From NCBI GenBank assembly GCA_026388315.1, contig JAPLKA010000043.1:1-64000 (forward strand): a stretch of 64,000 nt of DNA. Direction: 5' to 3'. Below are positions 2,815 to 20,054 of this stretch, one piece after another. Position 1 is the first letter of the stretch. Every line of letters begins with the position of its first letter. A program made the position numbers and the translations under genes. Source of the stretch: Pseudomonadota bacterium (GTDB taxonomy: Bacteria; Desulfobacterota; Syntrophorhabdia; Syntrophorhabdales; Syntrophorhabdaceae). Under the pieces are notes generated by a model that was not told where the DNA came from, searched no databases, and saw nothing but the letters and a program-made list of their open reading frames with translations.

Positions 2815-2842
2815 ATGGCGGAGGGAGTAGGATTTGAACCCA
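2815..2842. repeat. att core copy 1 (tRNA-Ser 3' end)
   Basis: 28 bases identical to 20054-20081, i.e. the complement of the tRNA-Ser T-loop through the encoded CCA plus two flanking bases. The rest of the tRNA is absent here, so this is the displaced original 3' end (distal att site). Identity to the copies at 14341 and 20054 was read directly. Confidence 0.9.
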
Positions 2843-2881
2843 CTTTACCCCTTGATATCATTGACTCTACGAGTGAAATAA

Positions 2882-2898
2882 AACAGAAATAGAACAGA
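2882..2898. repeat. Left arm-type direct repeat of element 1
   Basis: The 17-mer AACAGAAATAGAACAGA recurs exactly at 14284-14300. It lies 39 bases from the end of core copy 1, mirroring the 40-base gap on the other side. In the excised circle the two copies would flank the core in direct orientation, as arm-type integrase binding sites do. Confidence 0.65.
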
Positions 2899-3191
2899 GT
2901 GTGGTTAACCTGTTTTTATGTTTCGTAAAGAAATAGAGAAGAAAACAAATTTTTGGAAAGTAGTCAATGTCACCCGCACCTACTGGGGGAATACATCACC
3001 CACGCACTATAAAAATATAATTATTTAGAACACCTACAACTAAACAGATTCAGTTAAATAAAATGCTAAGGATTACCGATTGAAACGAAGCATAACGCCT
3101 TTTTTATATCCAGATTCTAACATAGAAACTGGACCGGTTTTGTGGGGCAGGTCGCTTGACATATAAAAATGACATAGGGTAATCTGTAGTT

Positions 3192-5333
3192 ATGGACCTC
3201 ATACAAAACTGTGACAGGGCGGATACCCCCGACAAATGCTCAGGGGAAACGCTCTTCATAAGGGATATGCAATTTCCGGGGGTGCTCGATGCAGTGACCG
3301 TCTGCTCCGCTTCACGAAGGGCGAACATACTTAAGGTAGAACTGCCGGAGATGCCGAAGGGATACTTCACGGTTGACGCCTCGGATATCCCGGGCAGAAA
3401 CCATGTCGTTTACTTTCGCGACCCCTGTCCTTATTTTGCCGAAGGCCGGGTCAACTACATAGGACAGCCGATTATGCTGGTGGTTGGTCCAGATATCCGT
3501 CTGGTGCGCAAACTGGCCGGGGAAGTCTGTATCGAATACGACGAGATACCGCCAATCAAAACTATAGACGATGCCCTTTCGGGTAATTTCCCCCCTTTAC
3601 ACAAAGACAATAATGTATATGCAGAAGAGGCGTTCCATTACGGGGAGGTGGAACAGGCATTTTCCGAGGCCGCGGAGATTTTCGAGACTGTAACCCTGAC
3701 CGGCTATCAGGAACATCTCTACATGGAACCGCAAGGGGTCGTAGCCGTGCCTGATGGCGACCGCATTACGGTCTATGCCTCAACCCAGGGACCGCACGCC
3801 GTGCGTTTGACCCTTGCCGGGGCATTCGGGTGGGACCCGGGACGGTTTCGCGTGTGCCAGACCCCTGTTGGCGGGGGGTTTGGAGGAAAGATAGAGCTGC
3901 CGCTCATCCTCGCGGGGCACGCCGCCTTTGCCGCCCTGAAATGCGGCAGGCCAGTCAGGTTGGCATATTCACGGGAAGAGGACATGCTTGCGACCACCAA
4001 GCGCCATCCGTCCAGAGCGGTTGTCCGCACGGCCCTGAATAAAGAAAAACAGATAACTGCCATTGACATCGATGTGGTTTTCCAGGCCGGCGGATATGCC
4101 TTGTCCTGCGGAATGGTTCTTGACAACGGGTTGAAAAAGGCGACCGGCGTCTATCATTTTCCAGCCGCCAGAGTCAGAGGCCGGGCAGTGGCGACAAATA
4201 ACCCCATGGGCGGAGCATTACGAGGGTTTGGCGCGCCGCAGATTTTCTTTGCCCTTGAGACCCACATGAACGCCCTGGCCCGTAAATTAGGTGTGGATCC
4301 GTTGGCCTTCAAAGCAAATTATTTCATTCGTCAGGGCAACCCTACCCTGACCGGCGGCACGTATCACTTCCATGTTTCGCTTCCTGAAGTTGTGGAAGCG
4401 GTAAAAAAAATATCCGATTACAAGAACAGGATTACCTCGCTGCCCAGGGCTCATACCAGGCTATTCGGCATAGGCCAGGCATTGTTCAACTTTGGTGCCC
4501 CATTTTCCATAGATTCCAAAATGCCTGCAGGAAATCGGTCAGGCACAATCATGTCCTTGGGATTACTCAAGTGTGAAAACGGGACAATAGAGATTCTTTC
4601 AGAATTGGTAGACATGGGCCAGGGCCTTCACACCGTCTTTCGCAAGATTGTTGCAAAAACACTTGATATTCCTATTGAACGGGTTGCATACGACAATGTT
4701 GATACGGATCACGTGCCTCCATTCACCATCACAGGCGCATCCATGTCTGTGGTAGCCATCGGGCGCACACTCAAAAATGTAGCGGAAAAACTAAAACCTC
4801 GCCTGAATGAGCCTGGCGAGATACGCATAATCGAACAATATCAGCAACCTCCCCATGTAAATTGGGATGCGGCAAAACAACAGGGCGATCCCTTCCATTC
4901 ATATGTATGGGGGGCGGTTATCGCCGAGGTGGAGGTGGACACCGTCACCTGGCAGGTCCTGGTGCGTCATCTCTGGATGGCTATTGATATAGGAACAGCC
5001 ATAGACAGACGCATCGTGCGCGGGCAGATAGACGGCGGCGTTATGCAGGGATTGGGCTATGCCCTACTCGAATCGATCCCTCCGGATACGATGATTGCAT
5101 CTTTGGCCGATTACATTATTCCCACATCTCTTGATGCCCCGGCTATTGAAAGCATCCTTGTGGAAAATCTTTATCTGGAAGGGCCTTACGGCGCGAAATG
5201 TACAGGCGAACCTCCCCTTGTCGGAATGGCCCCGGCCATAGCCGATGCTGTTGCCAACGCTTGCGGTGTTGAGATTACACAATTGCCGATTTCCCCTGAA
5301 TATTTGATGAAAAGGGTGATTGAAAAACCATGA
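3192..5333 (+). CDS. Molybdenum hydroxylase large (Moco) subunit, xanthine dehydrogenase family
   Basis: 713 residues covering the aldehyde oxidase/xanthine dehydrogenase a/b hammerhead (about 15-125) and the Moco-binding domain. GGGFGGK (227-233), ALRGFGAPQ (342-350, Arg344, Phe346) and GEPPL with the base catalyst Glu673 are present. From the GGGFGG motif to RGFG the comparison with bovine xanthine oxidase (recalled from memory) needs no gap over 110 positions; in it Glu802 becomes Ile234 and Arg880 becomes Asn312. Both residues orient purines, so xanthine is an unlikely substrate and a different N-heterocycle or aldehyde is more plausible. It is a little shorter than typical 750-780-residue relatives. 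First gene of the element 1 operon; overlaps the 2Fe-2S subunit gene by four bases (ATGA). No sulfurase or XdhC gene is adjacent. Confidence 0.9.
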   Translation: MDLIQNCDRADTPDKCSGETLFIRDMQFPGVLDAVTVCSASRRANILKVELPEMPKGYFTVDASDIPGRNHVVYFRDPCPYFAEGRVNYIGQPIMLVVGPDIRLVRKLAGEVCIEYDEIPPIKTIDDALSGNFPPLHKDNNVYAEEAFHYGEVEQAFSEAAEIFETVTLTGYQEHLYMEPQGVVAVPDGDRITVYASTQGPHAVRLTLAGAFGWDPGRFRVCQTPVGGGFGGKIELPLILAGHAAFAALKCGRPVRLAYSREEDMLATTKRHPSRAVVRTALNKEKQITAIDIDVVFQAGGYALSCGMVLDNGLKKATGVYHFPAARVRGRAVATNNPMGGALRGFGAPQIFFALETHMNALARKLGVDPLAFKANYFIRQGNPTLTGGTYHFHVSLPEVVEAVKKISDYKNRITSLPRAHTRLFGIGQALFNFGAPFSIDSKMPAGNRSGTIMSLGLLKCENGTIEILSELVDMGQGLHTVFRKIVAKTLDIPIERVAYDNVDTDHVPPFTITGASMSVVAIGRTLKNVAEKLKPRLNEPGEIRIIEQYQQPPHVNWDAAKQQGDPFHSYVWGAVIAEVEVDTVTWQVLVRHLWMAIDIGTAIDRRIVRGQIDGGVMQGLGYALLESIPPDTMIASLADYIIPTSLDAPAIESILVENLYLEGPYGAKCTGEPPLVGMAPAIADAVANACGVEITQLPISPEYLMKRVIEKP

Positions 5334-5806
5334 CTGTATCCATACCATTTGAGCTGAATGGCGTTCCGGTAGAGGCCGATGCCTCTCTGGAGACACGTCT
5401 GGTGGATGTACTACGCGAACAGTTCAAACTTACCGGAACAAAAGAGGGCTGCGGCGAGGGTGAATGCGGAGCATGTATGATCCTGCTCGACGGCCAGCCG
5501 GTTCTTTCCTGTATTACAGCGGTGGGCGCTGTGCGCGGCAGGCAGGTAACCACAATCGAGGGGTTGAGATCAACAACGGGCTTTGCCGTGCTTTCCCAGG
5601 CCTTGAATGATGCCGGGGCAGTTCAATGCGGATTCTGCACACCGGGGACGATTGTTACTGCATACGCATTGTTGAGGGATTTTCCGATGCCTGATGAAAA
5701 GACCATCCGTGAGGCTCTTGCGGGCAATCTCTGCCGCTGCACCGGGTACAACATGATCGTGGAGGCCGTCACTTTGGCGGCCCAAAAAAGGGGAGATGCA
5801 TGGTAA
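5330..5806 (+). CDS. Molybdenum hydroxylase small subunit, two [2Fe-2S] clusters
   Basis: 158 residues, the usual length for the separate iron-sulfur subunit (XdhC/CoxS/HcrC type). The plant-type ferredoxin cluster ligands are C41, C46, C49 and C61 (CGEGECGAC); the helical C-terminal cluster is bound by C100, C103, C135 and C137 (CGFC and CRC). It passes electrons from the molybdenum site to the FAD subunit. The start overlaps the large-subunit stop as ATGA and its end overlaps the FAD-subunit gene, so the three are translationally coupled. The gene order large-small-FAD differs from the commoner FAD-small-large order. Confidence 0.93.
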   Translation: MTVSIPFELNGVPVEADASLETRLVDVLREQFKLTGTKEGCGEGECGACMILLDGQPVLSCITAVGAVRGRQVTTIEGLRSTTGFAVLSQALNDAGAVQCGFCTPGTIVTAYALLRDFPMPDEKTIREALAGNLCRCTGYNMIVEAVTLAAQKRGDAW

Positions 5807-6669
5807 CCGGCACAACTTCATGCCCGGAGACAATCGAGGCAGCGGCCAAAGCTAAGGCGGACGGAGCTATATTGTACGCCGGGGGTACGGATGTCATGCT
5901 GCGTTATGCCCAGGCTATACGAACCGGCCAGACCGTCCCATTTGTTTTCCTGAATGTGGTGAACGGGCTTAAAGACGTGGTGGTCGGCGGATCGAAAACC
6001 CGTATCGGCGCGATGATTACCATGTCCAAAATAACACGGCATCCGGACATCCCCGATCTGTTGAGGCAGGCCTGCGGTGTGGTAGGCTCTCCAGCCCTGC
6101 GCAACGTTGCAACTCTTGGCGGCAATATCTGCACGGCCTCGCCTGCAGGCGACAGTCTGCCAGCATTGTGTGTCCTTGAGGCCCTTGTGGAACTGCGGTC
6201 GCCGACAAAAACACGGATTGTGCCCATTGATAAATTTATTTCCGGCCCCAAAGAAACAGTTTTGGCGCCGGACGAACTTCTTGTCGCCGTAATAATCCCG
6301 GATAACAACCTGAAATGTTTTTATCACCGCAAGGTCAGTTCAAGAACGGCAAACGCCATAACAAAGGTCTCCATTGCCGCGGCAACAACGATAGAGGACG
6401 GAATAATAAAAGACATTCGCCTGGCCTTTGGGGCAGTCGGCCCGACAGTCATCAGATGTACCTCGCTTGAACAGGAACTTAAAGGCATATCTGCAGACAA
6501 GCTTCCCAAAACGATGCCGCATTGGAAACACCAGGTGGCGAAACTGATTGAGCCGATAGACGATCTACGATCAACCGCTCAATACCGCTGCATCATTGCA
6601 TCAAACCTTTTTGAGGAAATAGTGAATGCCATAAATAAACGAGTGCCGGAGCATTCCGGCTTAATATGA
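5800..6669 (+). CDS. Molybdenum hydroxylase FAD-binding subunit
   Basis: 289 residues of the CO dehydrogenase/xanthine dehydrogenase FAD-subunit family. The FAD pyrophosphate loop AGGTDVMLR lies near residue 28 and the second FAD motif TLGGNICTASPAGD near 106, both well conserved; the C-terminal CO-dehydrogenase flavoprotein domain spans about 175-280. It would transfer electrons from the 2Fe-2S subunit to NAD+ or another acceptor. Overlaps the small-subunit gene by seven bases and the MFS gene by four. Confidence 0.92.
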   Translation: MVTGTTSCPETIEAAAKAKADGAILYAGGTDVMLRYAQAIRTGQTVPFVFLNVVNGLKDVVVGGSKTRIGAMITMSKITRHPDIPDLLRQACGVVGSPALRNVATLGGNICTASPAGDSLPALCVLEALVELRSPTKTRIVPIDKFISGPKETVLAPDELLVAVIIPDNNLKCFYHRKVSSRTANAITKVSIAAATTIEDGIIKDIRLAFGAVGPTVIRCTSLEQELKGISADKLPKTMPHWKHQVAKLIEPIDDLRSTAQYRCIIASNLFEEIVNAINKRVPEHSGLI

Positions 6670-7841
6670 CACATCCCAAAAGCCTTTACAGCAAAGAATT
6701 TATAGTCATAAACATCATTTTTTTCATTACCGCAATGGTAATGGCAATCTTTTTTCGCCTTCACCCTTACCTTGAATCCATTAATATCAACCCGGCATGG
6801 ATCGGCCCCATAATGTCTGCAGATTCCATGGCGGGGATGTTTCTGCAGCCTGTCTTCAGTTTGATGCTCACCGCAGGCAATTCAAAGAGATGGATGTACC
6901 TCGGCATCTCATGGATAATAGTTTCCTTGTTGCTTTATAACATCTATTTTACCGCGCCCGCCCTTATTGCGATAAGGATACTTCAGGGAACAGGGTTTGT
7001 CTGCGTGTCATCGGCAATAATGGCCCTTATAGCAGAATACATCCCCGTAGAAAAAAGCGGGCAGGCATTCGGTTTTATTACATCAGCGAGGCTTCTGCCG
7101 TTTGCCCTTATGCCGCCCGTGATGGGCTATTGCTTCAGCGGGACAGACGGCTTCATCACAGCGCTCAGGTATTCCGTTGTTATTATGGCATGCGCAATGG
7201 CGATACTTTTTTTGCTTAAACCCGCTTACTCACCGGGTGAAAAACAAAGAGCCTCCAAACGCCTGACCAAAGAAGAGATACTGGGCAATTTCGGGGACCG
7301 GGGCGTCCTGATGCTGCTTTTGATAAACATATTGCTCTACACCGGCTATTCAATGGCGTTCTTCTTTCTGGCGGGGTACTGCAGTTCTAAAGGGATAGCA
7401 AATCCCGGCCTGTTTTTTACCATAGCGGTATTAGTAATGATCGCGGTCAGGTTTTCCTTCGCCGTATTGTTTGACAGATTCAGCAAGTTTGCAATAACGG
7501 CCGTCTGCATGGTAGGTCTTGCCGCATGTTATTTATCTCTGCCTTTTGTTACAGGAAAGGCCGGTTTTTACACAATCGCTTTTTTTACAGGTCTCGGATG
7601 GGGGATCGCCATGCCTCTCCTTCTGGCTGTAATGTTCGACATATCGCCGCCGTCTTTCAGAGGTCTCAACTTGAACATGTCGGTTGCCATGGTGTTTGTG
7701 GGTTTTTTTGTCAGCCCCCTTGCGGGCGGCTTTATACTTGAAAGATCGGGCTACGATATGCTCTTTTATTTCTGCGGGATATTGAGCGTTATTGCCTTCC
7801 CTCTGATTATGCTTGCAAGGAGGAGTCGTGTCATCGGATGA
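6666..7841 (+). CDS. Major facilitator superfamily transporter
   Basis: 391 residues with about twelve hydrophobic segments and the central basic loop near residue 190 (EKQRASKRLTKEE), typical of 12-helix MFS permeases. No sequence feature fixes the substrate. Its ATG overlaps the FAD-subunit stop (ATGA), so it belongs to the same unit and plausibly imports the hydroxylase substrate or exports its product. No signal for a drug-efflux subfamily is clear. Confidence 0.85.
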   Translation: MTHPKSLYSKEFIVINIIFFITAMVMAIFFRLHPYLESININPAWIGPIMSADSMAGMFLQPVFSLMLTAGNSKRWMYLGISWIIVSLLLYNIYFTAPALIAIRILQGTGFVCVSSAIMALIAEYIPVEKSGQAFGFITSARLLPFALMPPVMGYCFSGTDGFITALRYSVVIMACAMAILFLLKPAYSPGEKQRASKRLTKEEILGNFGDRGVLMLLLINILLYTGYSMAFFFLAGYCSSKGIANPGLFFTIAVLVMIAVRFSFAVLFDRFSKFAITAVCMVGLAACYLSLPFVTGKAGFYTIAFFTGLGWGIAMPLLLAVMFDISPPSFRGLNLNMSVAMVFVGFFVSPLAGGFILERSGYDMLFYFCGILSVIAFPLIMLARRSRVIG

Positions 7842-8871
7842 AAGATACGAAATAGAAGAAGGGCAGAAATTTGTAATAGATATGTTCCGGAACGAAGACG
7901 CGGAGGGCGTCTCGCGCCTTTTCAGGACCGTTTATGGCGAGGACTATCCTGTAAAACTTGTTTACAATCCGGCAGCACTTATAGAGGCGCTCGATAAAAG
8001 GGAGAATATACCTGCCGTTGCCCGCACCGGAAAAGGGGATATTGTCGGCTATAGCGCGCTTTACCGGTCTGCGCCCAACCCCGGTCTTTACGAGATCGGC
8101 CAGGGCCTGGTGCTGCCTTCCTATCGCAGTGGGGGCATAATTTCAAAAATAAACTTTTTTCTCTACGATGCCTCCTCGAGACAAAACATAGATGCCGTAT
8201 TCGGCGAGGCGGTCTGTAATCATGTATATATGCAGAAAAGCGGGGCAGGTGTTATCGGAAACGATACGGAAACCGCGATCGAGATCGATCTCATGCCTGC
8301 CGAGGTATATGTCGCAGAAAAAAGCTCCTCGGGCAAGGTGGCGGCAATATCTATGTTTGCGATTTTTAATCAAAGTCCACAGACCTTATATATCCCGAAG
8401 ATATATAAGGCACCGTTTAACTACATTCTCTCTACAAAAAACATCAGGCTAAACGATAAGCATACATTTCTTGAATCCTCCGGGGTTGCACCTGTGGATA
8501 TAATATCCGAATATAAATCTCAGACCTTCGATTTTGCAAAAGTAGCTCGCATCGCTTTTTTTGAGGCAGGCGGGGATTTTGAAACAATCTTTGAAAAGAT
8601 CGAGGAAGATATACTGCTTCAGCGCATTATGGTAATCCAGGTATGGCTTAAGCTAACAACCCCCTGGATAGGCAGCATTGTCGATATGTTAAGGGGAAAG
8701 GGGTACTTTCTGGGCGGGATTCTGCCCAGGTGGTTCGGAGGCGACGGCATGCTCATGCAAAAGGTCATAGGGCGACCGAACTGGGAGGGGATTAACCTGT
8801 ATTCGGAACGTGCCCGGCAGATATTGCGTTTCATAAAAGATGACTGGCAGAAGACTTCTGCCGGTCAATAA
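7828..8871 (+). CDS. GNAT-family acyltransferase-like protein
   Basis: 347 residues from the GTG at 7828, chosen because AAGGAGG sits just upstream; a TTG fifteen bases earlier is in frame but poorly placed. The N-terminal 170 residues match the GNAT fold: FRNEDAEGVSRLF, then a motif-A-like strand-helix QGLVLPSYRSGGIISKI near 105-122 that should hold the acyl-CoA pyrophosphate. The C-terminal half has no motif I recognise. The gene overlaps the MFS stop by 14 bases. Within the operon it would acylate the product, an intermediate or a carrier. Confidence 0.7.
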   Translation: MSSDERYEIEEGQKFVIDMFRNEDAEGVSRLFRTVYGEDYPVKLVYNPAALIEALDKRENIPAVARTGKGDIVGYSALYRSAPNPGLYEIGQGLVLPSYRSGGIISKINFFLYDASSRQNIDAVFGEAVCNHVYMQKSGAGVIGNDTETAIEIDLMPAEVYVAEKSSSGKVAAISMFAIFNQSPQTLYIPKIYKAPFNYILSTKNIRLNDKHTFLESSGVAPVDIISEYKSQTFDFAKVARIAFFEAGGDFETIFEKIEEDILLQRIMVIQVWLKLTTPWIGSIVDMLRGKGYFLGGILPRWFGGDGMLMQKVIGRPNWEGINLYSERARQILRFIKDDWQKTSAGQ

Positions 8872-8887
8872 ATTCAGGAGGATATCC

Positions 8888-9679
8888 ATGCAGAATTTTC
8901 TTGATCGCACATTTCCTATACTGGGAGAGGAAGGGCTTAAGGCGCTTTCGACCCCGCTTATCACCCTTTCGGGGCTTGGCGGAGTCGGCGGCGGAACATT
9001 TTTGAATCTTGTCCGCTGCGGGGTAAAAAGGTTTCGGCTGGCGGAAAACGGTATTTTTGACCCCCCTGACATGAATCGTCAGGCAGCGGCTTTCGCTTCG
9101 ACTATCGGAATGCCCAAGATTGAGGTATACGAAAGGCTTGCCCGCGAGATCAATCCTGAGATCGAACTCGAACTCTTTCCCGAAGGACTAACCGTCCGTA
9201 ATATTGAGCGGTTTCTCGAAGGCAGCGATGTCCATGTGGGTGTGATAGATGTAGAAAAAGGCACGGATGTAAAGGCGATGGAATCCGAACTTGTCAGAAG
9301 ATACAATATTCCTCTGTTTACTGCCGGGGTCTTTGGATTCGGCGCTACAATGATTGCATATCACCCTGAAGGCATGCCAGCTACTGAATTCTGGGGATTG
9401 ATGGCGAAAAAAACTACAGGGAATTCTGTTTTTCCATCCTTTCTCATTGACAGGTTCGATAAAACCGTGATGGAGCGGGTGAAAAACGCTGTCAAAACGG
9501 GTAAAATAGCCACAACAAGCGTCGGCGGCACACTGTCGGGAACCATCCTTGCATCGGAGGTATTGGCATACCTCCTGCGCGGGACAGATATTGTAAACCG
9601 CGAGATTATCTTTGCCCCCAAGTTCATTGTAATTGATCTTTTGCGGCTTACTATGGAAGTAGTTGATATTACTAAATAA
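8888..9679 (+). CDS. ThiF/MoeB/HesA-family adenylating (E1-like) enzyme
   Basis: 263 residues from ATG 8888, which has AGGAGG at the right distance. The Rossmann nucleotide loop GLGGVGGGTF is near residue 30 and the family D-x-x-N-R-Q signature (PPDMNRQ) near 62, so ATP-dependent adenylation of a C-terminal carboxylate is expected. The paired CxxC zinc site of MoeB/ThiF is not seen and I find no clear catalytic cysteine for sulfur or ubiquitin-like transfer. No ThiS/MoaD-like small carrier is encoded beside it. The next gene is a PP-loop ATPase, making two adenylating enzymes in a row. It might also act on a peptide, as MccB does. Confidence 0.8.
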   Translation: MQNFLDRTFPILGEEGLKALSTPLITLSGLGGVGGGTFLNLVRCGVKRFRLAENGIFDPPDMNRQAAAFASTIGMPKIEVYERLAREINPEIELELFPEGLTVRNIERFLEGSDVHVGVIDVEKGTDVKAMESELVRRYNIPLFTAGVFGFGATMIAYHPEGMPATEFWGLMAKKTTGNSVFPSFLIDRFDKTVMERVKNAVKTGKIATTSVGGTLSGTILASEVLAYLLRGTDIVNREIIFAPKFIVIDLLRLTMEVVDITK

Positions 9680-9690
9680 AGGAGAGATCC

Positions 9691-11160
9691 ATGAACTTAC
9701 CGAAATACCCGGCCTTACAATACCGCTGGCAGATTAAAGACACAGACACAGGGGCGCAACTCGTATATTTCGGCCTGCGTAACCCGCCCAACCATACGAA
9801 AAACATAATACCCCTGCCGAGTGAGCTTGCCGACAGTCTGCGGTTGCTTAACGGCAAGACCGCGAGCAATGATCTGCCGTCTTCCCTTACCGGCAGTGAA
9901 ATATATGCCCGACTGGTTTCTGAAAAGATTGTTGTGGAGGCGGATAAAGTACACAAGCCATCCTCAAAAGAACATTACCGGGAGTGTGTGCGCTGCGTTA
10001 CCAACGACTACATCCTCCCCGGATTGGAGTTTGACGAAAACGGGCTCTGCGCATTCTGCCAGTGTTATGAACAGGCGGAAAAATCAGGCCGGGGGTCGTT
10101 GATGCAGGAAGGCGCGACAGACGATGAATTGCTCAAAATTGCCGCTGAAAACACCCGTTCGCGCTTTGATGTCATGGTTTTATATACGGGCGGCAAAGAC
10201 TCCACATACCTGCTCTGGTATCTGGCCAAAAAGCTCGGGCTGCGCGTGCTTGTCGCTTCGTGGAATATGCCATACACCAACGATACGTGCAGAGAAAACA
10301 TGCGCCGGGCCATGCGTCTCCTCCCGGATACGGAATTTATTGAACGTACCATGCCCTGGAATGTCGTCCGGCAGGCAATGCACAACCAGTTTGAATATAC
10401 CGGCCTCCCATGCCTCTGCCCTATGGCTGCCCATGCGCTCTTTTATCCCCTCGCCGCACAGGAAAAGATACCTGTGATTATGCACGGGGTCGAAGAGGTG
10501 CAACTGGCTGTGATGAATTATGTGATGACAGAGATCAAATCGGGACAGCCCCAAAAGGAACAAGCCCCCGATTTCCGCGCCAATACGCTGAACTTTCTGC
10601 GGCTCCTAACTAAACAGCCTGTCCATGCACAACCCTACGCCCTGAATGCCGATCTCTTCCGGTACATGCCTTCCGTCAAAAAACAATTACCCGCTGTGTA
10701 CATGCCGCTGGACGATATTGTAGCGCAGGCGGAAAATAATCCGGATATGTCTATCCCTGAATTGCGCCGCCTTAAAACCAACACCACCTACGGTTCGTGG
10801 GCCGAGGTTGCCGAGCTGATAAAAAAGGAGATGGACTGGCAGATGCCGTCGGAGCAAAAAGCATTGCTCCATACCAGCTGCCGCATAGAAAAGGTCAAGG
10901 ATTATTGCCAGTTCCAACGCTTCGGGGCGGCTCGAAGCGTCACATTCCCCCAGTCGGTTGTAGAGCTTGGCGCAGGCGTCTATTTCGGACTCATCTCCCG
11001 GCAGGACGCATTGATGGAGTTGCAGGAGACAGGTTATTACAACAAGCCGGAGATTCTTTCATCACTACTTGATGATCTGGGTATTGACGCCGATCGGGCG
11101 TCCGGCGAGATCCCCTGGTCTCTGGGCAGATGCGCCGGGTGTTCCCAACAGGGTTCCTGA
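9691..11160 (+). CDS. PP-loop ATPase, N-acetyl-sugar amidotransferase (WbpG/PseA)-like, with RRE-like N-terminus
   Basis: 489 residues behind AAAGGAGAG. The PP-loop is TGGKDS (166-171), preceded by a zinc-ribbon pair C99-x2-C102 and C120-x2-C123 in the layout of WbpG/PseA/LegA amidotransferases. Those enzymes adenylate an acetamido group and install an amidine using ammonia. The N-terminal 90 residues instead have the pattern of a PqqD/RRE winged helix (IIPLPSELADSLRLLNGK then EIYARLVSEKIVVE), which in RiPP enzymes binds a precursor peptide. A final CxxC (RCAGC) is near the C-terminus. Function in this operon is unknown; tRNA-type thiolation or peptide modification are alternatives to sugar amidation. 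Confidence 0.72.
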   Translation: MNLPKYPALQYRWQIKDTDTGAQLVYFGLRNPPNHTKNIIPLPSELADSLRLLNGKTASNDLPSSLTGSEIYARLVSEKIVVEADKVHKPSSKEHYRECVRCVTNDYILPGLEFDENGLCAFCQCYEQAEKSGRGSLMQEGATDDELLKIAAENTRSRFDVMVLYTGGKDSTYLLWYLAKKLGLRVLVASWNMPYTNDTCRENMRRAMRLLPDTEFIERTMPWNVVRQAMHNQFEYTGLPCLCPMAAHALFYPLAAQEKIPVIMHGVEEVQLAVMNYVMTEIKSGQPQKEQAPDFRANTLNFLRLLTKQPVHAQPYALNADLFRYMPSVKKQLPAVYMPLDDIVAQAENNPDMSIPELRRLKTNTTYGSWAEVAELIKKEMDWQMPSEQKALLHTSCRIEKVKDYCQFQRFGAARSVTFPQSVVELGAGVYFGLISRQDALMELQETGYYNKPEILSSLLDDLGIDADRASGEIPWSLGRCAGCSQQGS

Positions 11161-11176
11161 TAAAGAGGAGAGAAAG

Positions 11177-12844
11177 ATGAAAAAGACCCTGCTACTACTC
11201 ATCGGGTTCGGTTTCCTGATATTTCAAACCGGCATCGGTGAGGCAACAGCCGGTTCACGCTGTACCGATCCCAACAACGCTGTGTCAGCCTATTTTCAGG
11301 CAATTAATGCAGCGCCGCAGGAATTGAAAGATAGAATCCGCAGCTTTCCGAAGGGTGCGGATATTCATAATCACCTGCCTGGTTCAGTCATGCCGGAAAC
11401 CTATATCAATATGGGTATAAAAGACCGTAATTGCTATGGAACCGATCTAAATGACAAGACTATGCTCAGGATCATCCCCAATACCGGGACGCCCGATTCA
11501 TGCCCTCCGGGAAGTTCCCCTTTATCCGGGATAAATGCTGCCGATCATCAAAGGCTTGTAAGATCGCTTTCCATGTACAAATACCCTTATACCGACATCC
11601 AATCAGGCCACGACCAGTTCTTTGCCGCATTCGGCCGTCTTGGGGTGGGATACGGCTCAAAAAATATAAATATCATACTGGGAGACATGCTGGCAGAGAT
11701 GTTAAGGCACGCCAGAGCGGACAATATATCATACGTGGAGACGATGACGTATTTTCAGACGGGGGCGATAGCTGGCCTTGCGGATAAGCTAAGGCAAAAA
11801 TATCCCGGCAACTCTTACTATACCGGGACTGCCCATTATGGCGAAATGCTTGATTTTCTACAGAAATCAGGGCTGCCGGATGCCGTCAACGCGGCAAGGT
11901 CGGATATTGCGACATATATTGATAACGCAAAAAATGCTCTCAGATGCGGTTCCCCGGAGCAGGACAAGGCATGCCTTGTCTCTTATGCCCTCATCGCGGC
12001 TGTCAACCGCGCTAGCAGCATAAGAGGCAACCCCGGAACGCCCGATCTGCCCGGGATATTCACCCAGACGGCGTTCTCTTTCCTTCTGTCTCTTAAAGAT
12101 AAAAACGTCGCGGGTATAAATCTGGTGGGTGCGGAAGATTCACCAATTTCCATGCAGACATTCAAGACAGTCATGCAGTTCTTCAGCTTCTTCAATTCCA
12201 GATTTAAGGATGTAAATATCGCCCTTCATGCAGGCGAACTTACCCCATGTTTTATAGAGGCTGGAAACCCGGCATTTAAGGAACATCTTGCCGGCTCTAT
12301 CAGGGCAGGGGCAAAGCGACTGGGACATGCCGTATCTATTGCATACCTGAACCCGGCTGACATGAAAGAGGTCATCGACTTGATGAAGGTAAAAAACATT
12401 CTTATAGAGTCGCCGCTTACAGTCAATGCGCAGATATTGGGCGTTGCCGGCAACGAACACCCCTTTTCCTCATACTGGAGGCACAATGTCCCTGTAGCAT
12501 TCGCAACGGACGATGAGGGTATTTCATATGCTTCCTCCACAGATACCTGGGTTTACTCATTTATGCAATATGATTTTATGGACTATAACAGCATGGTCAG
12601 GCTTGCCCGTAGTAGCCTCCAGCATAGTTTCGCCCCCGGCGCCCCGCTTTGGCAGGACGTGCCTGCGGCAAAGATCGCCCCTCAGTGTCAGGGCGCATCG
12701 CCGGGCATCCCCAATCCGCCGGAGCCGTGCAGATCATTTCTGGCCGACAGCAAAAAGGCAAGGTTGCAGTGGAATTACGAGGCGACCCTTAACGATTACA
12801 CGAAACAATACGGCAAAGATCTGAAAAAAACCAACAATTACTGA
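11177..12844 (+). CDS. Exported adenosine-deaminase-family protein
   Basis: 555 residues from ATG 11177 (AGAGGAGAG upstream), beginning with a signal peptide: MKKT, a hydrophobic core and a small-residue end near ATAGS, about residue 25. The metal-dependent deaminase TIM barrel shows HxH (H64, H66 in DIHNHLPGS), HAGE (H351, E354), GHA (H384) and the paired aspartates D445-D446 in ATDDEG, so the active site is complete. It resembles secreted ADGF/ADA enzymes and is longer than cytosolic ADA (about 340 residues) because of inserts around residues 90-130 and 245-290. It would act in the periplasm or outside, on adenosine or a related amino-purine. Last gene of the element 1 operon. Confidence 0.85.
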   Translation: MKKTLLLLIGFGFLIFQTGIGEATAGSRCTDPNNAVSAYFQAINAAPQELKDRIRSFPKGADIHNHLPGSVMPETYINMGIKDRNCYGTDLNDKTMLRIIPNTGTPDSCPPGSSPLSGINAADHQRLVRSLSMYKYPYTDIQSGHDQFFAAFGRLGVGYGSKNINIILGDMLAEMLRHARADNISYVETMTYFQTGAIAGLADKLRQKYPGNSYYTGTAHYGEMLDFLQKSGLPDAVNAARSDIATYIDNAKNALRCGSPEQDKACLVSYALIAAVNRASSIRGNPGTPDLPGIFTQTAFSFLLSLKDKNVAGINLVGAEDSPISMQTFKTVMQFFSFFNSRFKDVNIALHAGELTPCFIEAGNPAFKEHLAGSIRAGAKRLGHAVSIAYLNPADMKEVIDLMKVKNILIESPLTVNAQILGVAGNEHPFSSYWRHNVPVAFATDDEGISYASSTDTWVYSFMQYDFMDYNSMVRLARSSLQHSFAPGAPLWQDVPAAKIAPQCQGASPGIPNPPEPCRSFLADSKKARLQWNYEATLNDYTKQYGKDLKKTNNY

Positions 12845-13478
12845 CACAAGGAAATAATATGACTGACAACACCGCATAGTCCGGCGGCAGGGTGGAAACT
12901 AAAGCACGATAGAGCATATTGCCTGAAGTGCACGCTCAGAATTGATACGTTCATTCATAAAGACACCTTGAACTTGTTGTCATATGGTATTTAGACCTTC
13001 TTTGTTCACTTCGTCTTTAATTCTTCACATTTAATATAACTATATGGTTTTTTTTCTAAAATCTCATACCATACCAATGCTAAAAACATCCAAAATACCC
13101 CTTTATAATGGGTATTTTTACTTTTCTAAATGGTATTTGTTGATATTATGCAAAATAACCAATTTGTCATAATACAGGTTTTTCTGCACTTGGGCCAATT
13201 AATTTATAGTGATCCCCTGTCATACGAAAAACCTTAAAACCGAGACGGTTATGTGTTCACTGACGCTGATTGATCCACCCCAAACACTTTATATTGTATC
13301 CAGAATGTGCTTTTATTAAAGAAAATAATTATGCTTGTCATTGCGGAAATGCCTTTGGTGAGGATTACCGAACGAAAGCACAGACAATTCGTTAAATATC
13401 AAAGTTGAGACTTTCAGGAAGACAGCATCAGTTTTTTAGCATCTTCACTTACCTGCAACTTGAAATGGCAATCACTGT
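12845..13478. other. Gene-free AT-rich region of element 1
   Basis: No ORF with coding character on either strand. It contains one strong hairpin (13092-13118) and marks a sharp drop in G+C after the cargo operon. A short open stretch around 13341-13397 is cysteine-containing and might be debris of the missing N-terminal part of the integrase, but I could not align it. Confidence 0.5.
13092..13118. terminator. Hairpin, probable operon terminator
   Basis: AAAATACCC (13092-13100) and GGGTATTTT (13110-13118) form a perfect 9-bp stem with a 9-base loop; the A/T-rich arms give a U-tract in either direction. It is 250 bases after the adenosine-deaminase-like gene and before the integrase. Confidence 0.5.
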
Positions 13479-14317
13479 CCTGAGTATGTCCGTGTCCTTA
13501 AAACCTACAATAGAAAATGGTAACATTGAAAGATAGGGATGTGAGGGACATCAAGAAGGTGAACATCAAAGAACTGTCAGATTCAATAAACACAAAGAGC
13601 AAAACCCAGAAGAACATAATGGATGGTCTAAGGGCATTTATGAACTGGTTACACTATAACGGCATAATTGAAACAGTTCCGCCCTTCCCTTCCATTGAAA
13701 TAGACGATGCAGATGTTAAATATGCCCTCGATGTTTCTACGCAGATGGAACAACTAAATAAGATACCAGAAATGCACAGGGATATATTTATATTTGAAGC
13801 TGATACAGGATTACGTCCAAGCGAGGTATGTGCGTTGAAGGTTAAAGACTTCAGCATTGCACAGGGTGTTGTTTTAATACAGAGAACATTCAGCGGTAAG
13901 CATTTAAGAGAAAAAACAAAGCAGAAAAAAAAGAAATTATTGCCCCTTACAGAACGACCCTTAGAAATAGCAACAAAGCACTTACAGGGAAAACACCCTG
14001 ATGCATTTTTGTTTATCAACCCTATAACGGGTAGGCATTATACCCGACATACTCTGGGAGATTATTGGAACAGGTATGTTGACGTACCTCTTTCGCATTA
14101 TGACGGCACTCGTCATAGTTTTTGCACTCAACTTGTTGATGCTGATGTGAACCCATTACAAGCGAAAGAACTTATGCGTCACTCATCCCTGAAGTCGACC
14201 GAAAATTATTATCATGGCAATATAAATGTACTTAGATTAGCACTAAATAAAAGAGCAAAAATCATATCCCTGAGCATGGATAGAACAGAAATAGAACAGA
14301 AGGTTGGCAAGGGTTAA
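13479..14317 (+). pseudogene. Tyrosine recombinase of element 1, N-terminus lost
   Basis: The intact reading frame from ATG 13517 gives 266 residues: part of the core-binding domain and the full catalytic domain (Arg in TGLRPSEV, GTRHSFCTQ, LMRHSSLKSTENYYH with the nucleophilic Tyr). It aligns throughout with the element 2 integrase, which has about 130 more N-terminal residues (zinc-ribbon and arm-binding region). Bases 13479-13520 in another frame encode PEYVRVLKTYNRKW then a stop, matching PEYYRIIKNYHKNYF in element 2, so a frameshift has split the gene here. The stub lacks the arm-binding domain and is probably inactive alone. Its 3' end overlaps the right arm-type repeat. Confidence 0.75.
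14284..14300. repeat. Right arm-type direct repeat of element 1
   Basis: Exact 17-base copy of 2882-2898, located inside the last codons of the integrase and 40 bases before core copy 2. Confidence 0.65.
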
Positions 14318-14340
14318 CTTATTGAAATTACTATAATAGA

Positions 14341-14367
14341 ATGGCGGAGGGAGTAGGATTTGAACCC
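14341..14367. repeat. att core copy 2 (junction of elements 1 and 2)
   Basis: 27 bases identical to the tRNA-Ser 3' end (20054-20080), again without the rest of the tRNA. It is simultaneously the right end of element 1 and the left end of element 2. Confidence 0.9.
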
Positions 14368-14406
14368 TCTCCGATGCCCTATTATCAACGTTTTCCTTTA
14401 AGCTTA

Positions 14407-14425
14407 GAAACGGAAAGGAAACGAG
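14407..14425. repeat. Left arm-type direct repeat of element 2
   Basis: GAAACGGAAAGGAAACGAG, recurring exactly at 19999-20017. It is 39 bases from core copy 2. Its internal GAAAC/GAAA pattern resembles the element 1 repeat. Confidence 0.65.
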
Positions 14426-14473
14426 ATCATTTAAGTAAATTAGAAATAACGCACAAAAAAAGACAAATAGAAA

Positions 14474-14506
14474 GCCACCGGGACTCTTTGGCGGGTGTCC
14501 GGTGGC
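14474..14506. promoter_or_regulatory. Hairpin in the leader of the rep gene
   Basis: GCCACCGG (14474-14481) and CCGGTGGC (14499-14506) make a perfect 8-bp stem with a 17-base loop, 40 bases upstream of rep. It is the only GC-rich spot in the region. It may be the Rep nicking site, a copy-control element or an attenuator. Confidence 0.4.
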
Positions 14507-14546
14507 CTGTTGAAGGGCTCCACAATCCTGACATGGGGGAAAGGAA

Positions 14547-15737
14547 GTGGAGACCATGTCAAGTATAACATGCTTTCCCAATCTGTCAACAACCATTTCA
14601 GACTCTAAACCATCGATACAAGAAAAAAACAAGGAAACCTTTTCATACCCTTCAAAAAGGCATAGGGGTGAAAAGAGGTCCGTTCCTGTAGTGGACGATC
14701 ATGATGGTAATAGTTCCCACGCAAGCACTGTGCCGGAGGTTTTTACCTCGGCGCGGGGCTTGCCGGGGGTGAACGCTGCCAACGTTAAGAAGGTCTTTAC
14801 TTCACTTGATTATAGGAACACTCAAGCAGAACAACGTGAAAAAGCAGAACAACGTGAAAAAGATTATGCAAAATATTTTTCTAAAATAAAGCCTGATGTC
14901 GATTTATATAAATTCAAAACTATTCTTTCTGGTGATGTATTAGAGCTTTATGAATATGAAGGTCTTCAAAGAAACAAAAAAGGTAAGGCAAAGAAACACA
15001 AAGAAAAAGAAGAAGAAAGCATTGAGGAGAAGACAGAAGAACAAAAACAGGAAATAAGAAAAAAGAGCATATCAAGGGCAAGCAAACATATAAAACGGAC
15101 TATAAATGCAAATGTGGGTAAATGGGGGCCTGAATTACCTAAGTTTCTTACCCTTACATTCGAGGATCATATAACCGATTTTGAGACAGCTAACTACGAA
15201 TTTAAAAAGTTTCATCAACGGCTATCGTATCGTATTGGCTATAAGCTCATATATACTGTTGTCGTTCAATTTCAAGATGGAGAAAGAAAGGGAGGTATAG
15301 AGGGCGGTCGCGGAGGTGTCATTCATTTTCATGTTGTGCTGTACAATATGCCTTTCATACCTTTCGAAAAACTTAAAGAGTTATGGGGTCAAGGTTTCCC
15401 CTTTATTAATGCTATCCATCACGTAGACAATTTGGGGGCCTATGTTGTGGGGTACATGTGTAAAAAACTTGATGATGTGCGTTATGACGGACAAAAGCGG
15501 TATTTTTCAAGCCGGGGGCTTCATGAACCGTTAGAGATTAAATCATCACGTCCTATTGACCTTGGAGAATTCACAGAAGATCATAAGGTTTATGAAACGT
15601 CCTTTGAGAATGAGTATACAGGCGTTATTCATTACAAACAGTACAACCTTAAAAAGAAGCTTGTATGTAGAAAATGTGAGGTGTTAGGTTCAACATCAAT
15701 AGAAAAAGATACCTTACGGTTTAACGGCTGCATGTAG
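14547..15737 (+). CDS. HUH-endonuclease replication initiator (Rep, G2P/ORF2-like)
   Basis: 396 residues from GTG 14547; ATG 14556 is an alternative. The C-terminal half has the three motifs of rolling-circle initiators: FLTLTF (200-205), the metal-binding HFH of the HUH motif (H260, H262 in IHFHVVLYN) and two tyrosines in YVVGYMCKK (Y299, Y303), either of which could be the nicking nucleophile. This motif set matches the replication-associated ORF2/G2P group of filamentous phages and small plasmids. The N-terminal 180 residues are low-complexity, with a charged Lys/Glu stretch at about 135-180 and a short in-tandem duplicated AEQREK. Large hairpins follow directly downstream. Confidence 0.82.
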   Translation: METMSSITCFPNLSTTISDSKPSIQEKNKETFSYPSKRHRGEKRSVPVVDDHDGNSSHASTVPEVFTSARGLPGVNAANVKKVFTSLDYRNTQAEQREKAEQREKDYAKYFSKIKPDVDLYKFKTILSGDVLELYEYEGLQRNKKGKAKKHKEKEEESIEEKTEEQKQEIRKKSISRASKHIKRTINANVGKWGPELPKFLTLTFEDHITDFETANYEFKKFHQRLSYRIGYKLIYTVVVQFQDGERKGGIEGGRGGVIHFHVVLYNMPFIPFEKLKELWGQGFPFINAIHHVDNLGAYVVGYMCKKLDDVRYDGQKRYFSSRGLHEPLEIKSSRPIDLGEFTEDHKVYETSFENEYTGVIHYKQYNLKKKLVCRKCEVLGSTSIEKDTLRFNGCM

Positions 15738-15845
15738 GCGGGCGTTTATACCGTTAAAACTTTTTGGGATAAAAACATAAGGATAATTATAAAGGTTTAT
15801 TTTATTGTTATCCGTTTTTATAAAAGTTTTAATTGTATGCCCGCC
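15737..15845. repeat. Long imperfect hairpin directly after rep
   Basis: Nested arms pair in order: 15737-15743 with 15839-15845 (GGCGGGC/GCCCGCC), 15754-15764 with 15822-15832 (11 bp), 15769-15776 with 15814-15821 (8 bp), 15781-15786 with 15808-15813 (6 bp). Two four-base bulges lie on the left arm and the terminal loop is 21 bases. About 32 paired bases starting at the rep stop codon suggest a replication origin rather than a simple terminator. Confidence 0.65.
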
Positions 15846-16190
15846 GTAATCGAGCCGTTTAAGGTATCTACCTTATAAAAAGGTCTTTATGGTTTCATCG
15901 CTTTAATTCGTTTACATACAGGGTATATGGAGAGTTGGAAACGATTTAAAGCGATGTCCGTCCGGATTTTGATAATGATAATTCAACAACAAGTTGGTTA
16001 AATAAACAAAAATAATCTCGCGTGTGTTGCACCTACAGACAAATGGCCTGCATGAACGTGAAGGCCAAGAATTGCGCTTTGAAAGTAAATACGCTCATGG
16101 GCTCTGAGAATAATCAAATGTGAAGATGTATATGTTGTCCTGCTCACCCACCTTTACTCCCTCAGTTACATAGATGCGCTGTCGTGGTAA
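15846..16190. other. Non-coding region with two further inverted repeats, candidate origin
   Basis: AAGGTA-TC-TACCTT (15861-15874) is a short palindrome, and 15896-15913 pairs with 15939-15956 over 18 bases with one mismatch. Together with the long hairpin before it, three structured segments occur within 220 bases. The remainder to 16190 shows no gene. Confidence 0.55.
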
Positions 16191-16691
16191 TTATCTTTTC
16201 ATGGCCTCATATAAACACTGAATCACGTCTTTACCACTTTTGTAGCAATCAATAATCTCATTTATTGTTAACGTTGGATAACCGCTATGCACATATTTAT
16301 GCCTACAAGTAATAAGATTTCCATAGTCAGTTGAAATACTAATTCTTGAAGTAGAAAAGACGCTGCTTTCCTTACCCTTTAGCTTCTGATTGAATTTTTT
16401 TAAGTATTTATCTCCGAAAAGCTTTACATGTTCGCCTTTTAAATCGTCTATTTTTATCCTTCCATTTAACCTTCTAAAGTGCTTTTCAATTACAGTTCCG
16501 AGCACTTTATGTTTTTGTGAAGCAAATTCATTAAATATGTCCTTTATTGCTAACTCATAGACCGTAACACTGCTGACTGATAAGAAACCAGTGTAGTCAG
16601 CTGCTATCGCCGGATCGGTAATTGTTCCAATAACCGTTTTCAAATGCGCAATAAGATTATCTGTAGCTACGAATCTATCTGTATAACTCAT
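16191..16691 (-). CDS. HEPN-domain protein, putative effector of a DUF262-HEPN pair
   Basis: 166 mostly alpha-helical residues ending in the HEPN ribonuclease signature R-x4-H (Arg130 and His135 in RHKYVHSG), in the position seen in RiboL-PSP/MAE-type HEPN proteins. HEPN proteins of this kind usually cleave RNA in abortive-infection or toxin systems. Its ATG overlaps the last base of the upstream DUF262 stop codon (TAATG), so the two are translationally coupled. It might alternatively be inert and serve as the partner of the DUF262 enzyme. Low G+C like its neighbours. Confidence 0.7.
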   Translation of the reverse strand: MSYTDRFVATDNLIAHLKTVIGTITDPAIAADYTGFLSVSSVTVYELAIKDIFNEFASQKHKVLGTVIEKHFRRLNGRIKIDDLKGEHVKLFGDKYLKKFNQKLKGKESSVFSTSRISISTDYGNLITCRHKYVHSGYPTLTINEIIDCYKSGKDVIQCLYEAMKR

Positions 16692-17779
16692 TATCGGCCA
16701 ATCAACTTGGTTTTTACATATGCAAATCTATCTTTTACAGTTTTTGCATCTGTTGTACCCAGGCTAGTGTAGTCGACAAAATTTCCGTCAGGTACTAGCT
16801 TTTTATACCTATCTCTTACATCACCAGGTATAGAATCTAAATTATTTAAGATTGTGCAGAAAACCGAATCCAGGGCTGATGTATTCAAGGGCCCACGTAC
16901 GTTGAATGGTTTTGCTCCGAGACTTTCGTGTATTATTCCACAGGTTTTAGAAAAATTAGTTGTGAATTCATCAATTAAACGCGATTCAGAGTTCTGATAT
17001 TTTTTTGTAATTGAATTAAGGAACTCATTCATTGGCTTTTCGTAAGTATTTAAGTGGTTAGCTAAACCAAAAATTCTCAAAATCAATTCAATATCTTTTT
17101 GATGCTTATCTTGAACCTTTTTCCCAATGATCAATCGCCAGTTTACATCGTTATTCAATGTTTTTAATTTTTTTAGAAATTTGCCCCTAAACACAACATT
17201 TCTAATCTCCTGGGAAGTTAATGGAGTCCCACCAGTATTTAATCTTTCAAAGATGTGATAAACGCTTGTGTTTTCCTCCTTTGGAGATAATTGACGAATA
17301 TTGATTGCCCTCAAAACAGAACCATTAAGTTTTCTTATCTCGGTTTCACTCAAGTCTGTAAATTTTTTATTGTAGAATGGACTTTTAGGATTTAAACCGG
17401 TCAGTTTGAACACTTGTCTTCTACCTCTAACATTTTCGTGACCGAAATAACCTTCGAAAAAGAACACAATACTCAATATTCTTTGTTGACCATCTACTAC
17501 TAGATTCTTATTTTCTTTATCTATGTAAAAGAAGACGGGAGGGACAGGAAGACCAATCAGAAAGGATTCGATAAGTTTAGATGATTGTTCTATGGTCCAA
17601 ACAAATCCCCTTTGAAAATCTGGTATTGTGATATCTTTTTTACCATCGCCCCACATTTTATATAATACTTCAAGAGTATTATCCGATGGGTATGTTGCAA
17701 TATCATACTCTACAAGCACTTCGTCTGCCTGTTCGTTTTCGTCTTCAACTTCTAATATGTCAGTTTCTAATTTTGTCAT
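16691..17779 (-). CDS. DUF262 (ParB/GmrSD-N-like) protein
   Basis: 362 residues. IPDFQRGFVW (52-61) and DGQQR (96-100) are the hallmarks of the DUF262 domain, a ParB/Srx-fold NTP-binding module found in the GmrS half of GmrSD type IV restriction enzymes and in other anti-phage proteins. The C-terminal DUF1524 His-Me-type nuclease of GmrD is absent; the C-terminal 180 residues are helical without recognised motifs. The stand-alone DUF262 plus HEPN arrangement suggests a two-gene system in which DUF262 senses or controls and HEPN kills. Transcribed away from the gene at 18142. Confidence 0.8.
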   Translation of the reverse strand: MTKLETDILEVEDENEQADEVLVEYDIATYPSDNTLEVLYKMWGDGKKDITIPDFQRGFVWTIEQSSKLIESFLIGLPVPPVFFYIDKENKNLVVDGQQRILSIVFFFEGYFGHENVRGRRQVFKLTGLNPKSPFYNKKFTDLSETEIRKLNGSVLRAINIRQLSPKEENTSVYHIFERLNTGGTPLTSQEIRNVVFRGKFLKKLKTLNNDVNWRLIIGKKVQDKHQKDIELILRIFGLANHLNTYEKPMNEFLNSITKKYQNSESRLIDEFTTNFSKTCGIIHESLGAKPFNVRGPLNTSALDSVFCTILNNLDSIPGDVRDRYKKLVPDGNFVDYTSLGTTDAKTVKDRFAYVKTKLIGR

Positions 17780-17870
17780 GTTAACCCCTTTTTTATATAG
17801 TTAGAGTTTAGTTAAGTGCGGGAATTGGAGAATGTCCATAAAATAGTAAATAACCTCCTTCAGCCAAAAA

Positions 17871-17893
17871 TGTTTAGTATTGAACGCTAAACA
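17871..17893. promoter_or_regulatory. 23-bp palindrome upstream of the DUF262 gene
   Basis: TGTTTAG (17871-17877) and CTAAACA (17887-17893) are perfect arms around nine bases whose centre is also partly symmetric. It lies 90 bases before the DUF262 start and is a plausible operator. Confidence 0.4.
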
Positions 17894-18116: not shown

Positions 18117-18141
18117 AAGCTATTAGACAAGGAGGCAAAAT

Positions 18142-20023: not shown

Positions 20024-20054
20024 ATGAAATTAGTCAATAATATCAGGTATAATA

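What the first reader, a model, noticed from the sequence alone, without database searches (positions are those of the whole stretch)
3192..12844. Undescribed cargo operon: Mo-hydroxylase, E1-like enzyme, PP-loop ATPase, acyltransferase and exported deaminase
Eight plus-strand genes with overlaps or gaps of under 20 bases combine enzymes not known to me in one pathway: a three-subunit molybdenum hydroxylase, MFS carrier, GNAT acyltransferase, two different adenylating enzymes in a row and a secreted adenosine deaminase-like protein. The mixture of redox, adenylation, acylation and transport looks like assembly or dismantling of a heterocyclic (possibly purine-derived) molecule carried on a mobile island.
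Basis: partly seen in the sequence, partly recalled or inferred. Interest (0 to 1): 0.75.

Follow-up and report, generated by a model that had tools for sequence, protein, structure and literature searches.

The report
Mosaic enzyme operon in tRNA island
A small DNA island inserted in a tRNA gene carries eight tightly packed genes, seven of which form a recurring, undescribed enzyme set (two ATP-activating enzymes, an acyltransferase, a molybdenum hydroxylase and an exporter) that probably builds an unknown small nitrogen-rich molecule.

Summary
In detail: eight + strand genes (3192-12844), overlapping by 4-14 nt or 11-16 nt apart, on a tRNA-Ser island bounded by repeats at 2816-2844 and 14342-14370. 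Its integrase lacks about 150 N-terminal residues. The E1 and PP-loop genes form a near-inseparable pair: 14 of 15 other genomes with a full-length PP-loop relative also hold an E1 relative. In L096, L097 and L099 the pair sits with close orthologues (59-66%) of this molybdenum hydroxylase plus an MFS carrier and a GNAT. Those MFS and GNAT proteins belong to other clades than the window's, so the functional set is kept while parts change: the operon is a mosaic. The exported deaminase is not part of the set. The PP-loop protein has the N-acetyl-sugar-amidotransferase fold plus an extra N-terminal domain; the E1 is TcdA/MccB-like, not ubiquitin-type. Best guess: biosynthesis and export of a small N-heterocyclic or amidine metabolite; product unknown. 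A sister cassette, often with partner-switching regulators, is widespread in the phylum.

The parts
2816..14341 (.). Element 1, the cargo island: from the left tRNA-Ser repeat to the base before the middle repeat
   Evidence: Direct repeats of the tRNA-Ser 3' end at 2816-2844, 14342-14370 and 20055-20083
3192..5333 (+). Molybdenum hydroxylase large subunit (713 aa), xanthine dehydrogenase family
   Evidence: MoCoBD_1, MoCoBD_2; GGGFGG and GEPP motifs; 59-66% to L096, L097, L099
5330..5806 (+). Hydroxylase [2Fe-2S] subunit (158 aa)
   Evidence: Fer2, Fer2_2; cysteine motifs; 70-76% to L097, L099
5800..6669 (+). Hydroxylase FAD subunit (289 aa)
   Evidence: FAD_binding_5, CO_deh_flav_C; 49-54% to L097, L099
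6666..7841 (+). MFS carrier (391 aa), of the lineage of the sister cassette
   Evidence: MFS_1; sister to the own-genome cassette copy, support 96/92
7828..8871 (+). GNAT-fold acyltransferase (347 aa, GTG start) with a further C-terminal half
   Evidence: AF2 pLDDT 89.5; GNATs at Z 13.2 over residues 19-191 of the model; groups with sister-cassette GNATs
8888..9679 (+). E1-like (ThiF-fold) adenylating enzyme (263 aa), no CxxC, one non-conserved Cys
   Evidence: ThiF E 3.3e-25; PRK08223 136.6 bits; nearest solved TcdA; motif check
9691..11160 (+). PP-loop ATP pyrophosphatase (489 aa): extra N-terminal domain 1-87, tetracysteine C99/C102/C120/C123, PP-loop TGGKDS 166-171
   Evidence: WbuX 101.6 bits; invariant columns; 8wex at Z 20.4, 308 aligned
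11177..12844 (+). Exported adenosine-deaminase-like protein (555 aa), probable passenger
   Evidence: A_deaminase E 3.5e-14; catalytic motifs; paralogue alone at G000:C13
13517..14317 (+). Integrase of element 1, lacking about 150 N-terminal residues relative to the element 2 integrase
   Evidence: Phage_integrase; tblastn aligns element 2 integrase residues 151-382 only
14342..20054 (.). Element 2, in tandem: Rep-like protein, GmrSD_N/HEPN pair, full-length integrase 18782-20023
   Evidence: Repeats; PF23343, PF03235, PF18735, PF00589
20055..20144 (-). tRNA-Ser (tga), integration target
   Evidence: ARAGORN

Best explanation
A mosaic, horizontally acquired operon for making and exporting one small nitrogen-rich (probably heterocyclic or amidine-bearing) metabolite. 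Shown: the seven-gene functional set (hydroxylase trimer, MFS, GNAT, E1-like, PP-loop) recurs around an almost inseparable E1 + PP-loop pair. Inferred: the GNAT acylates an amine (at related loci perhaps supplied by a HisC-type aminotransferase); the E1-like enzyme adenylates a carboxylate, as TcdA and MccB-type enzymes do, for amide formation or ring closure and not for a ubiquitin-like carrier; the PP-loop enzyme adenylates an amide carbonyl and replaces its oxygen with ammonia, giving an amidine or closed ring; the molybdenum enzyme hydroxylates a C-H next to ring nitrogen; the MFS exports the product. The exported deaminase is an add-on.
For: Same set in L097 and L099, most of it in L096. 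E1 relative in 14 of 15 PP-loop genomes, even where the genes are unlinked; best E1 match in 197 other sampled phylum genomes is 37%. Best hydroxylase match reported in 394 other phylum genomes is 41%, and the 59-66% orthologues were found only in genomes with PP-loop and E1. MFS and GNAT of the window belong to other clades than those of L096, L097 and L099, so the combination was kept while parts changed. PP-loop fold equals N-acetyl sugar amidotransferase 8wex with its tetracysteine and PP-loop. E1 lacks CxxC and a conserved Cys.
Against: No substrate or product is known. E1 and PP-loop genes also occur without the rest nearby in six syntroph-type genomes (L091-L095, L101), so the pair has a use on its own or with distant partners. 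HisC is not in the island, and no ammonia-supplying glutaminase is among the eight genes. Amidation is extrapolated from a distant family (17% identity over the fold match). Only four loci have the full hydroxylase type.
Confidence: 0.45

Rival explanations
1. Peptide modification (a RiPP-like path): residues 1-87 of the PP-loop protein act as a PqqD/RRE-type peptide-binding domain, and the MccB/PaaA-like E1 and the PP-loop enzyme modify a small precursor peptide.
For: The AF2 N-terminal domain has a strand-strand-strand-helix order like PqqD; hhalign puts it in the expected register; E1 profile also matches PaaA and MccB; an NHLP-leader gene lies near the Thiodictyon cassette.
Against: The PqqD Pfam family has no match in the own genome; hhalign score 15.7 is exceeded by two of 50 shuffles; no small ORF is conserved across the divergent loci.
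Confidence: 0.12
2. Nucleic-acid modification: the TcdA-like E1 and the PP-loop enzyme modify a tRNA, and the other genes are unrelated cargo.
For: Nearest solved E1 is the tRNA enzyme TcdA; the PP-loop fold is shared with TtuA, NcsA and MesJ/TilS; the pair stands apart from the other genes in some genomes.
Against: PP-loop nearest fold is the sugar amidotransferase, Z 20.4 against 11.2 for the next entry; the pair is linked to GNAT and exporters at many loci; patchy distribution, 2 of 395 phylum genomes.
Confidence: 0.1
3. Detoxification or catabolism of an imported N-heterocycle: hydroxylation, acetylation, efflux and (outside the cell) deamination.
For: MFS carrier, GNAT and hydroxylase are typical detoxification parts; the L099 carrier is of the EmrB efflux type; sister cassettes carry a sensor-regulator set.
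Against: Two ATP-consuming activating enzymes of synthetase type; no ring-cleavage genes among the eight; efflux fits synthesis equally well.
Confidence: 0.18
4. The eight genes are chance cargo with no common function.
For: Phylogenies of the parts differ; the deaminase is an outlier.
Against: Seven functional parts recur together at L097 and L099 with different MFS and GNAT clades.
Confidence: 0.08

Closest known systems
N-acetyl sugar amidotransferase (WbuX/WbpG/LpNASAT, PDB 8wex, PMC10607449)
   Same: Fold (Z 20.4, 308 residues), TGGKDS for SGGxDS, tetracysteine motif CxxC...GxCxxC
   Different: Extra 87-residue N-terminal domain, half the curated score, no sugar or LPS genes in the operon, linked to E1, GNAT and hydroxylase
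TcdA (tRNA t6A dehydratase) and MccB/PaaA E1-like enzymes
   Same: ThiF adenylation fold; chemistry without a ubiquitin-like carrier is expected
   Different: Closer to the uncharacterised PRK08223 family, paired with a PP-loop enzyme, no tRNA context; far below the TcdA cut-off
Three-subunit xanthine-dehydrogenase-family hydroxylases (e.g. PucCDE, 4-hydroxybenzoyl-CoA reductase)
   Same: Subunit make-up, Fe-S cysteines, GEPP Glu
   Different: Misses every equivalog cut-off; GGGFGGK is followed by I; close relatives found only with PP-loop + E1
Sister cassette found here: HATPase-GNAT, HisC-type aminotransferase, another Mo hydroxylase trimer, MFS, GNAT, often STAS, RsbW-like, NMT1-type SBP, Cache-HAMP-SpoIIE
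   Same: MFS and GNAT of the window come from this lineage; same order Mo-FeS-FAD-MFS-GNAT; a copy lies at G000:C72
   Different: No E1 or PP-loop; its hydroxylase is only 28-30% identical; its regulators and HisC are not in the island

Membership tests
N-acetyl sugar amidotransferase (NASAT) | PP-loop SGGxDS | tested here: met
   TGGKDS 166-171 invariant in 15 rows; T in place of the first S
N-acetyl sugar amidotransferase (NASAT) | Tetracysteine CxxC...[GN]xCxxC | tested here: met
   C99, C102, G118, C120, C123 invariant; definition from PMC10607449
N-acetyl sugar amidotransferase (NASAT) | NASAT fold | tested here: met
   8wex_B Z 20.4, rmsd 5.0, 308 aligned; next entry Z 11.2
N-acetyl sugar amidotransferase (NASAT) | Curated TIGR03573 score (203.2 bits) | tested here: not met
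   101.6 bits; so a relative, not filed as WbuX
N-acetyl sugar amidotransferase (NASAT) | Forms an acetamidino group on a sugar | not testable with these tools
   Needs biochemistry
TcdA | ThiF-fold adenylation domain of this type | tested here: met
   Best solved match of the E1 profile, E 9e-19
TcdA | Curated NF011696 score (304 bits) | tested here: not met
   47.1 bits
Ubiquitin-like-protein activating E1 (ThiF/MoeB/UbaA) | CxxC zinc site and catalytic cysteine | tested here: not met
   No CxxC; the sole Cys44 is not conserved
Ubiquitin-like-protein activating E1 (ThiF/MoeB/UbaA) | ThiS/MoaD-type carrier gene in the operon | tested here: not met
   None among the eight genes; the rest of the genome was not checked
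Xanthine-dehydrogenase-family molybdenum hydroxylase | MoCo-binding domains, Fe-S and FAD subunits, catalytic Glu | tested here: met
   Domains and motifs
Xanthine dehydrogenase proper (XdhA/PucD) | Equivalog cut-offs | tested here: not met
   383.9 of 783.65 and 368.1 of 780 bits
Exported adenosine deaminase | HxH, HAGE, GH, DD residues | tested here: met
   HNH 65, HAGE 352, GH 384, DD 446 (numbered from codon 11174)
Exported adenosine deaminase | Signal peptide | tested here: inconclusive
   Hydrophobic start MKKTLLLLIGFGFLIFQTG read by eye; no predictor available
PqqD/RRE-containing peptide modifier | RRE domain recognisable by profile | tested here: inconclusive
   PF05402 no match in G000; hhalign not above shuffles; order of elements alike
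PqqD/RRE-containing peptide modifier | Conserved precursor peptide nearby | tested here: not met
   No small ORF shared across divergent loci
tRNA-integrated genomic island | Flanking tRNA repeats and tyrosine integrase | tested here: met
   integrase truncated

The most novel reading that the evidence does not exclude
The E1-like and PP-loop enzymes with a GNAT and a molybdenum hydroxylase define an undescribed biosynthetic route to a new amidine or heterocyclic metabolite, spread by islands among Desulfobacterota and present also in Lentisphaerota and Planctomycetota, with related cassettes switched by a periplasmic sensor through STAS/RsbW/SpoIIE partner switching, including an acyltransferase fused to an RsbW-like domain.
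Probability: 0.35. Interest if true: 0.72.

Novelty: new variant of a known kind. Interest (0 to 1): 0.5.

Why it matters
If one pathway, it pairs two ATP-activating chemistries known separately (TcdA/MccB-type carboxylate adenylation and NASAT-type amide amidation) with hydroxylation and export, and would add a metabolite class to anaerobic sulfate reducers and syntrophs, whose small molecules are little known. No paper found in the held library describes the combination. Strains with culture-collection numbers, Desulfogranum marinum DSM 2058 and Solidesulfovibrio alcoholivorans DSM 5433, carry the E1 + PP-loop cluster, so it can be tested.

Tried and rejected
Close relatives of the PP-loop protein in viral contigs and plasmids: none full length. 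GNAT in viral contigs: none. The first phylum search with the PP-loop protein gave only distant WbuX-type proteins. PqqD/RRE idea: not supported statistically; the first attempt used wrong-strand sequences and is void. Precursor peptide search: nothing conserved across divergent loci. The first GNAT tree used a wrong reading frame for the window row and was replaced. The first alignment of PP-loop proteins failed on a stop codon and was redone. Deaminase as part of the set: dropped, because no relative was found at the PP-loop/E1 loci and the paralogue is alone; a cytosolic deaminase does sit in one sister cassette (L061), so a looser link is not excluded. The VIA-align list for the GNAT tests only residues 18-191; the C-terminal half had no tested fold match.
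Full report
OBSERVATION. The eight genes are present as described, all on the + strand, with overlaps of 4, 7, 4 and 14 nt and gaps of 16, 11 and 16 nt. Families: molybdenum hydroxylase large, Fe-S and FAD subunits, MFS, ThiF and A_deaminase by Pfam; WbuX-type PP-loop by NCBIfam below its cut-off; GNAT by predicted structure. The GNAT starts at GTG 7828 behind AAGGAGG; the deaminase at ATG 11177.

ISLAND. The 3' end of tRNA-Ser (20055-20144) is repeated at 2816-2844 and 14342-14370. So two elements lie in tandem: element 1 (2816-14341) with the operon and an integrase, and element 2 (14342-20054) with a Rep-like protein, a GmrSD_N/HEPN pair and a full-length integrase. The element 1 integrase matches the other only from residue 151 on, so element 1 is probably no longer mobile by itself. 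G+C: operon 0.507, element 2 0.374, flanks 0.415 and 0.444.

RECURRENCE. A pattern-and-tblastn scan of 84,980 species genomes with the PP-loop protein found 15 full-length relatives, 46-74% identical over the best segment, mostly Desulfobacterota, one Lentisphaerae and one Phycisphaerae MAG; the scan needs exact peptide patterns, so this is a lower bound. A profile search found one more among 394 other phylum genomes (G406). An E1 relative is in 14 of the 15 genomes, at 48-72% in 12 of them and 31-33% in two. E1 lies beside or within the PP-loop cluster in the window, L091, L093, L096, L097, L098, L099, L100, L103, L105 and L159, and apart from it in the genomes of L092, L094, L095 and L101. 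In 197 other sampled phylum genomes the best E1 match was 37%.

WHAT TRAVELS WITH THE PAIR. GNAT-type proteins: window, L096-L100, L105, L159, and an RsbW-like-HATPase-GNAT fusion at L102 (fragment), L103 and L104. Hydroxylase: window, L096 (contig ends inside the large subunit), L097, L099. MFS: window, L096, L097, L099, L102, L104. HisC-type aminotransferase with a HATPase-GNAT gene: L096, L098, L105, L159. Carboxyltransferase (PF01039): L102, L103, and the E1 loci L080 and L137. The exported deaminase: none of them. Close hydroxylase orthologues (59-66%) were found only in genomes with PP-loop and E1; in 394 other phylum genomes the best reported was 41% (only two first-look candidates per genome were scored there).

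MOSAIC. Trees: the window hydroxylase groups with L096, L097, L099 (100/100). The window MFS groups with the sister cassette of its own genome (96/92). The window GNAT groups with sister-cassette GNATs, apart from those of L096-L100 and L105 (100/99). Window E1 and PP-loop lie with L091 and the Syntrophorhabdus-type genomes, apart from L097 and L099. So the functional set is shared while the parts have different histories. This is read as selection for one function; replacement in place is an alternative to independent assembly, and the two were not told apart.

SISTER CASSETTE. GNAT searches led to a widespread cassette: HATPase-GNAT, HisC-type aminotransferase, another hydroxylase trimer (28-30% to the window's), MFS, GNAT, and often STAS, RsbW-like kinase, NMT1-type binding protein and Cache-HAMP-SpoIIE phosphatase. 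A copy without the regulators is at G000:C72 (L045). The L099, L103 and L105 PP-loop loci carry such regulators too. One cassette (L061) has a cytosolic adenosine deaminase in place of the hydroxylase.

ENZYMES. The PP-loop model (pLDDT 81.8) matches LpNASAT 8wex at Z 20.4 over residues 88-472, well above the next entry (Z 11.2), with the family's PP-loop and tetracysteine. Residues 1-87 form an extra domain with a PqqD-like order of elements; profile tests did not confirm this and no precursor peptide was found. The E1 profile is nearest TcdA, then ThiF, MoeB, UBA5, PaaA and MccB; it has no CxxC and no conserved Cys. The hydroxylase has its Fe-S cysteines and GEPP Glu, but Ile where xanthine oxidase has the purine-contacting Glu after GGGFGGK (sequence; the comparison rests on general knowledge), so xanthine is an unlikely substrate.

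MECHANISM. Shown: recurrence, fold, motifs, mosaic origin. Inferred: N-acylation by GNAT, carboxylate adenylation by E1, amide-to-amidine conversion by the PP-loop enzyme, hydroxylation, export. The order of steps is a guess. Rivals are peptide modification, tRNA modification, detoxification and chance cargo.

LIMITS. Many loci are MAG contigs cut at their ends; gene calls in G+C-rich loci rest on tblastn. GNAT and MFS are large families, so their linkage counts less than that of E1 and the hydroxylase. No co-occurrence probability was computed.

Noticed in passing
L045 (G000:C72), L051, L053, L056, L057, L063, L064, L022: Widespread cassette HATPase-GNAT, HisC-type aminotransferase, Mo hydroxylase trimer, MFS, GNAT, often with STAS, RsbW-like, NMT1-type SBP and Cache-HAMP-SpoIIE genes; looks like a sensor-controlled small-molecule module.
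   Followed up: partly
L053:13672-15006, L080:165-1733: Acyltransferase-like proteins with an N-terminal RsbW-like HATPase domain; the first lies in a cassette with STAS and SpoIIE genes: possible direct partner-switch control of an enzyme.
   Followed up: partly
window:16191-17779: GmrSD_N protein (PADLOC NsnA 215.9 bits, PD-T4-2_A 157.9 bits) with a RiboL-PSP-HEPN partner on element 2: likely anti-phage defence pair.
   Followed up: partly
window:14342-20054: Second tandem element in the same tRNA-Ser with a REP_ORF2-G2P replication-type protein and a full-length integrase.
   Followed up: partly
L022:11074-13142: In the Thiodictyon syntrophicum plasmid the cassette's Mo subunit gene is interrupted by an IS607-type element.
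   Followed up: no
L061:6855-7832: Cytosolic adenosine deaminase between HisC and MFS-GNAT in one cassette, in place of the hydroxylase.
   Followed up: no
L080, L103, L137: E1-like gene with HATPase-GNAT and a methylmalonyl-CoA-decarboxylase-like carboxyltransferase: another variant of the cluster.
   Followed up: partly
L079:2086-3825 (G000:C13): Paralogue of the exported deaminase (53%) standing alone in the same genome.
   Followed up: partly
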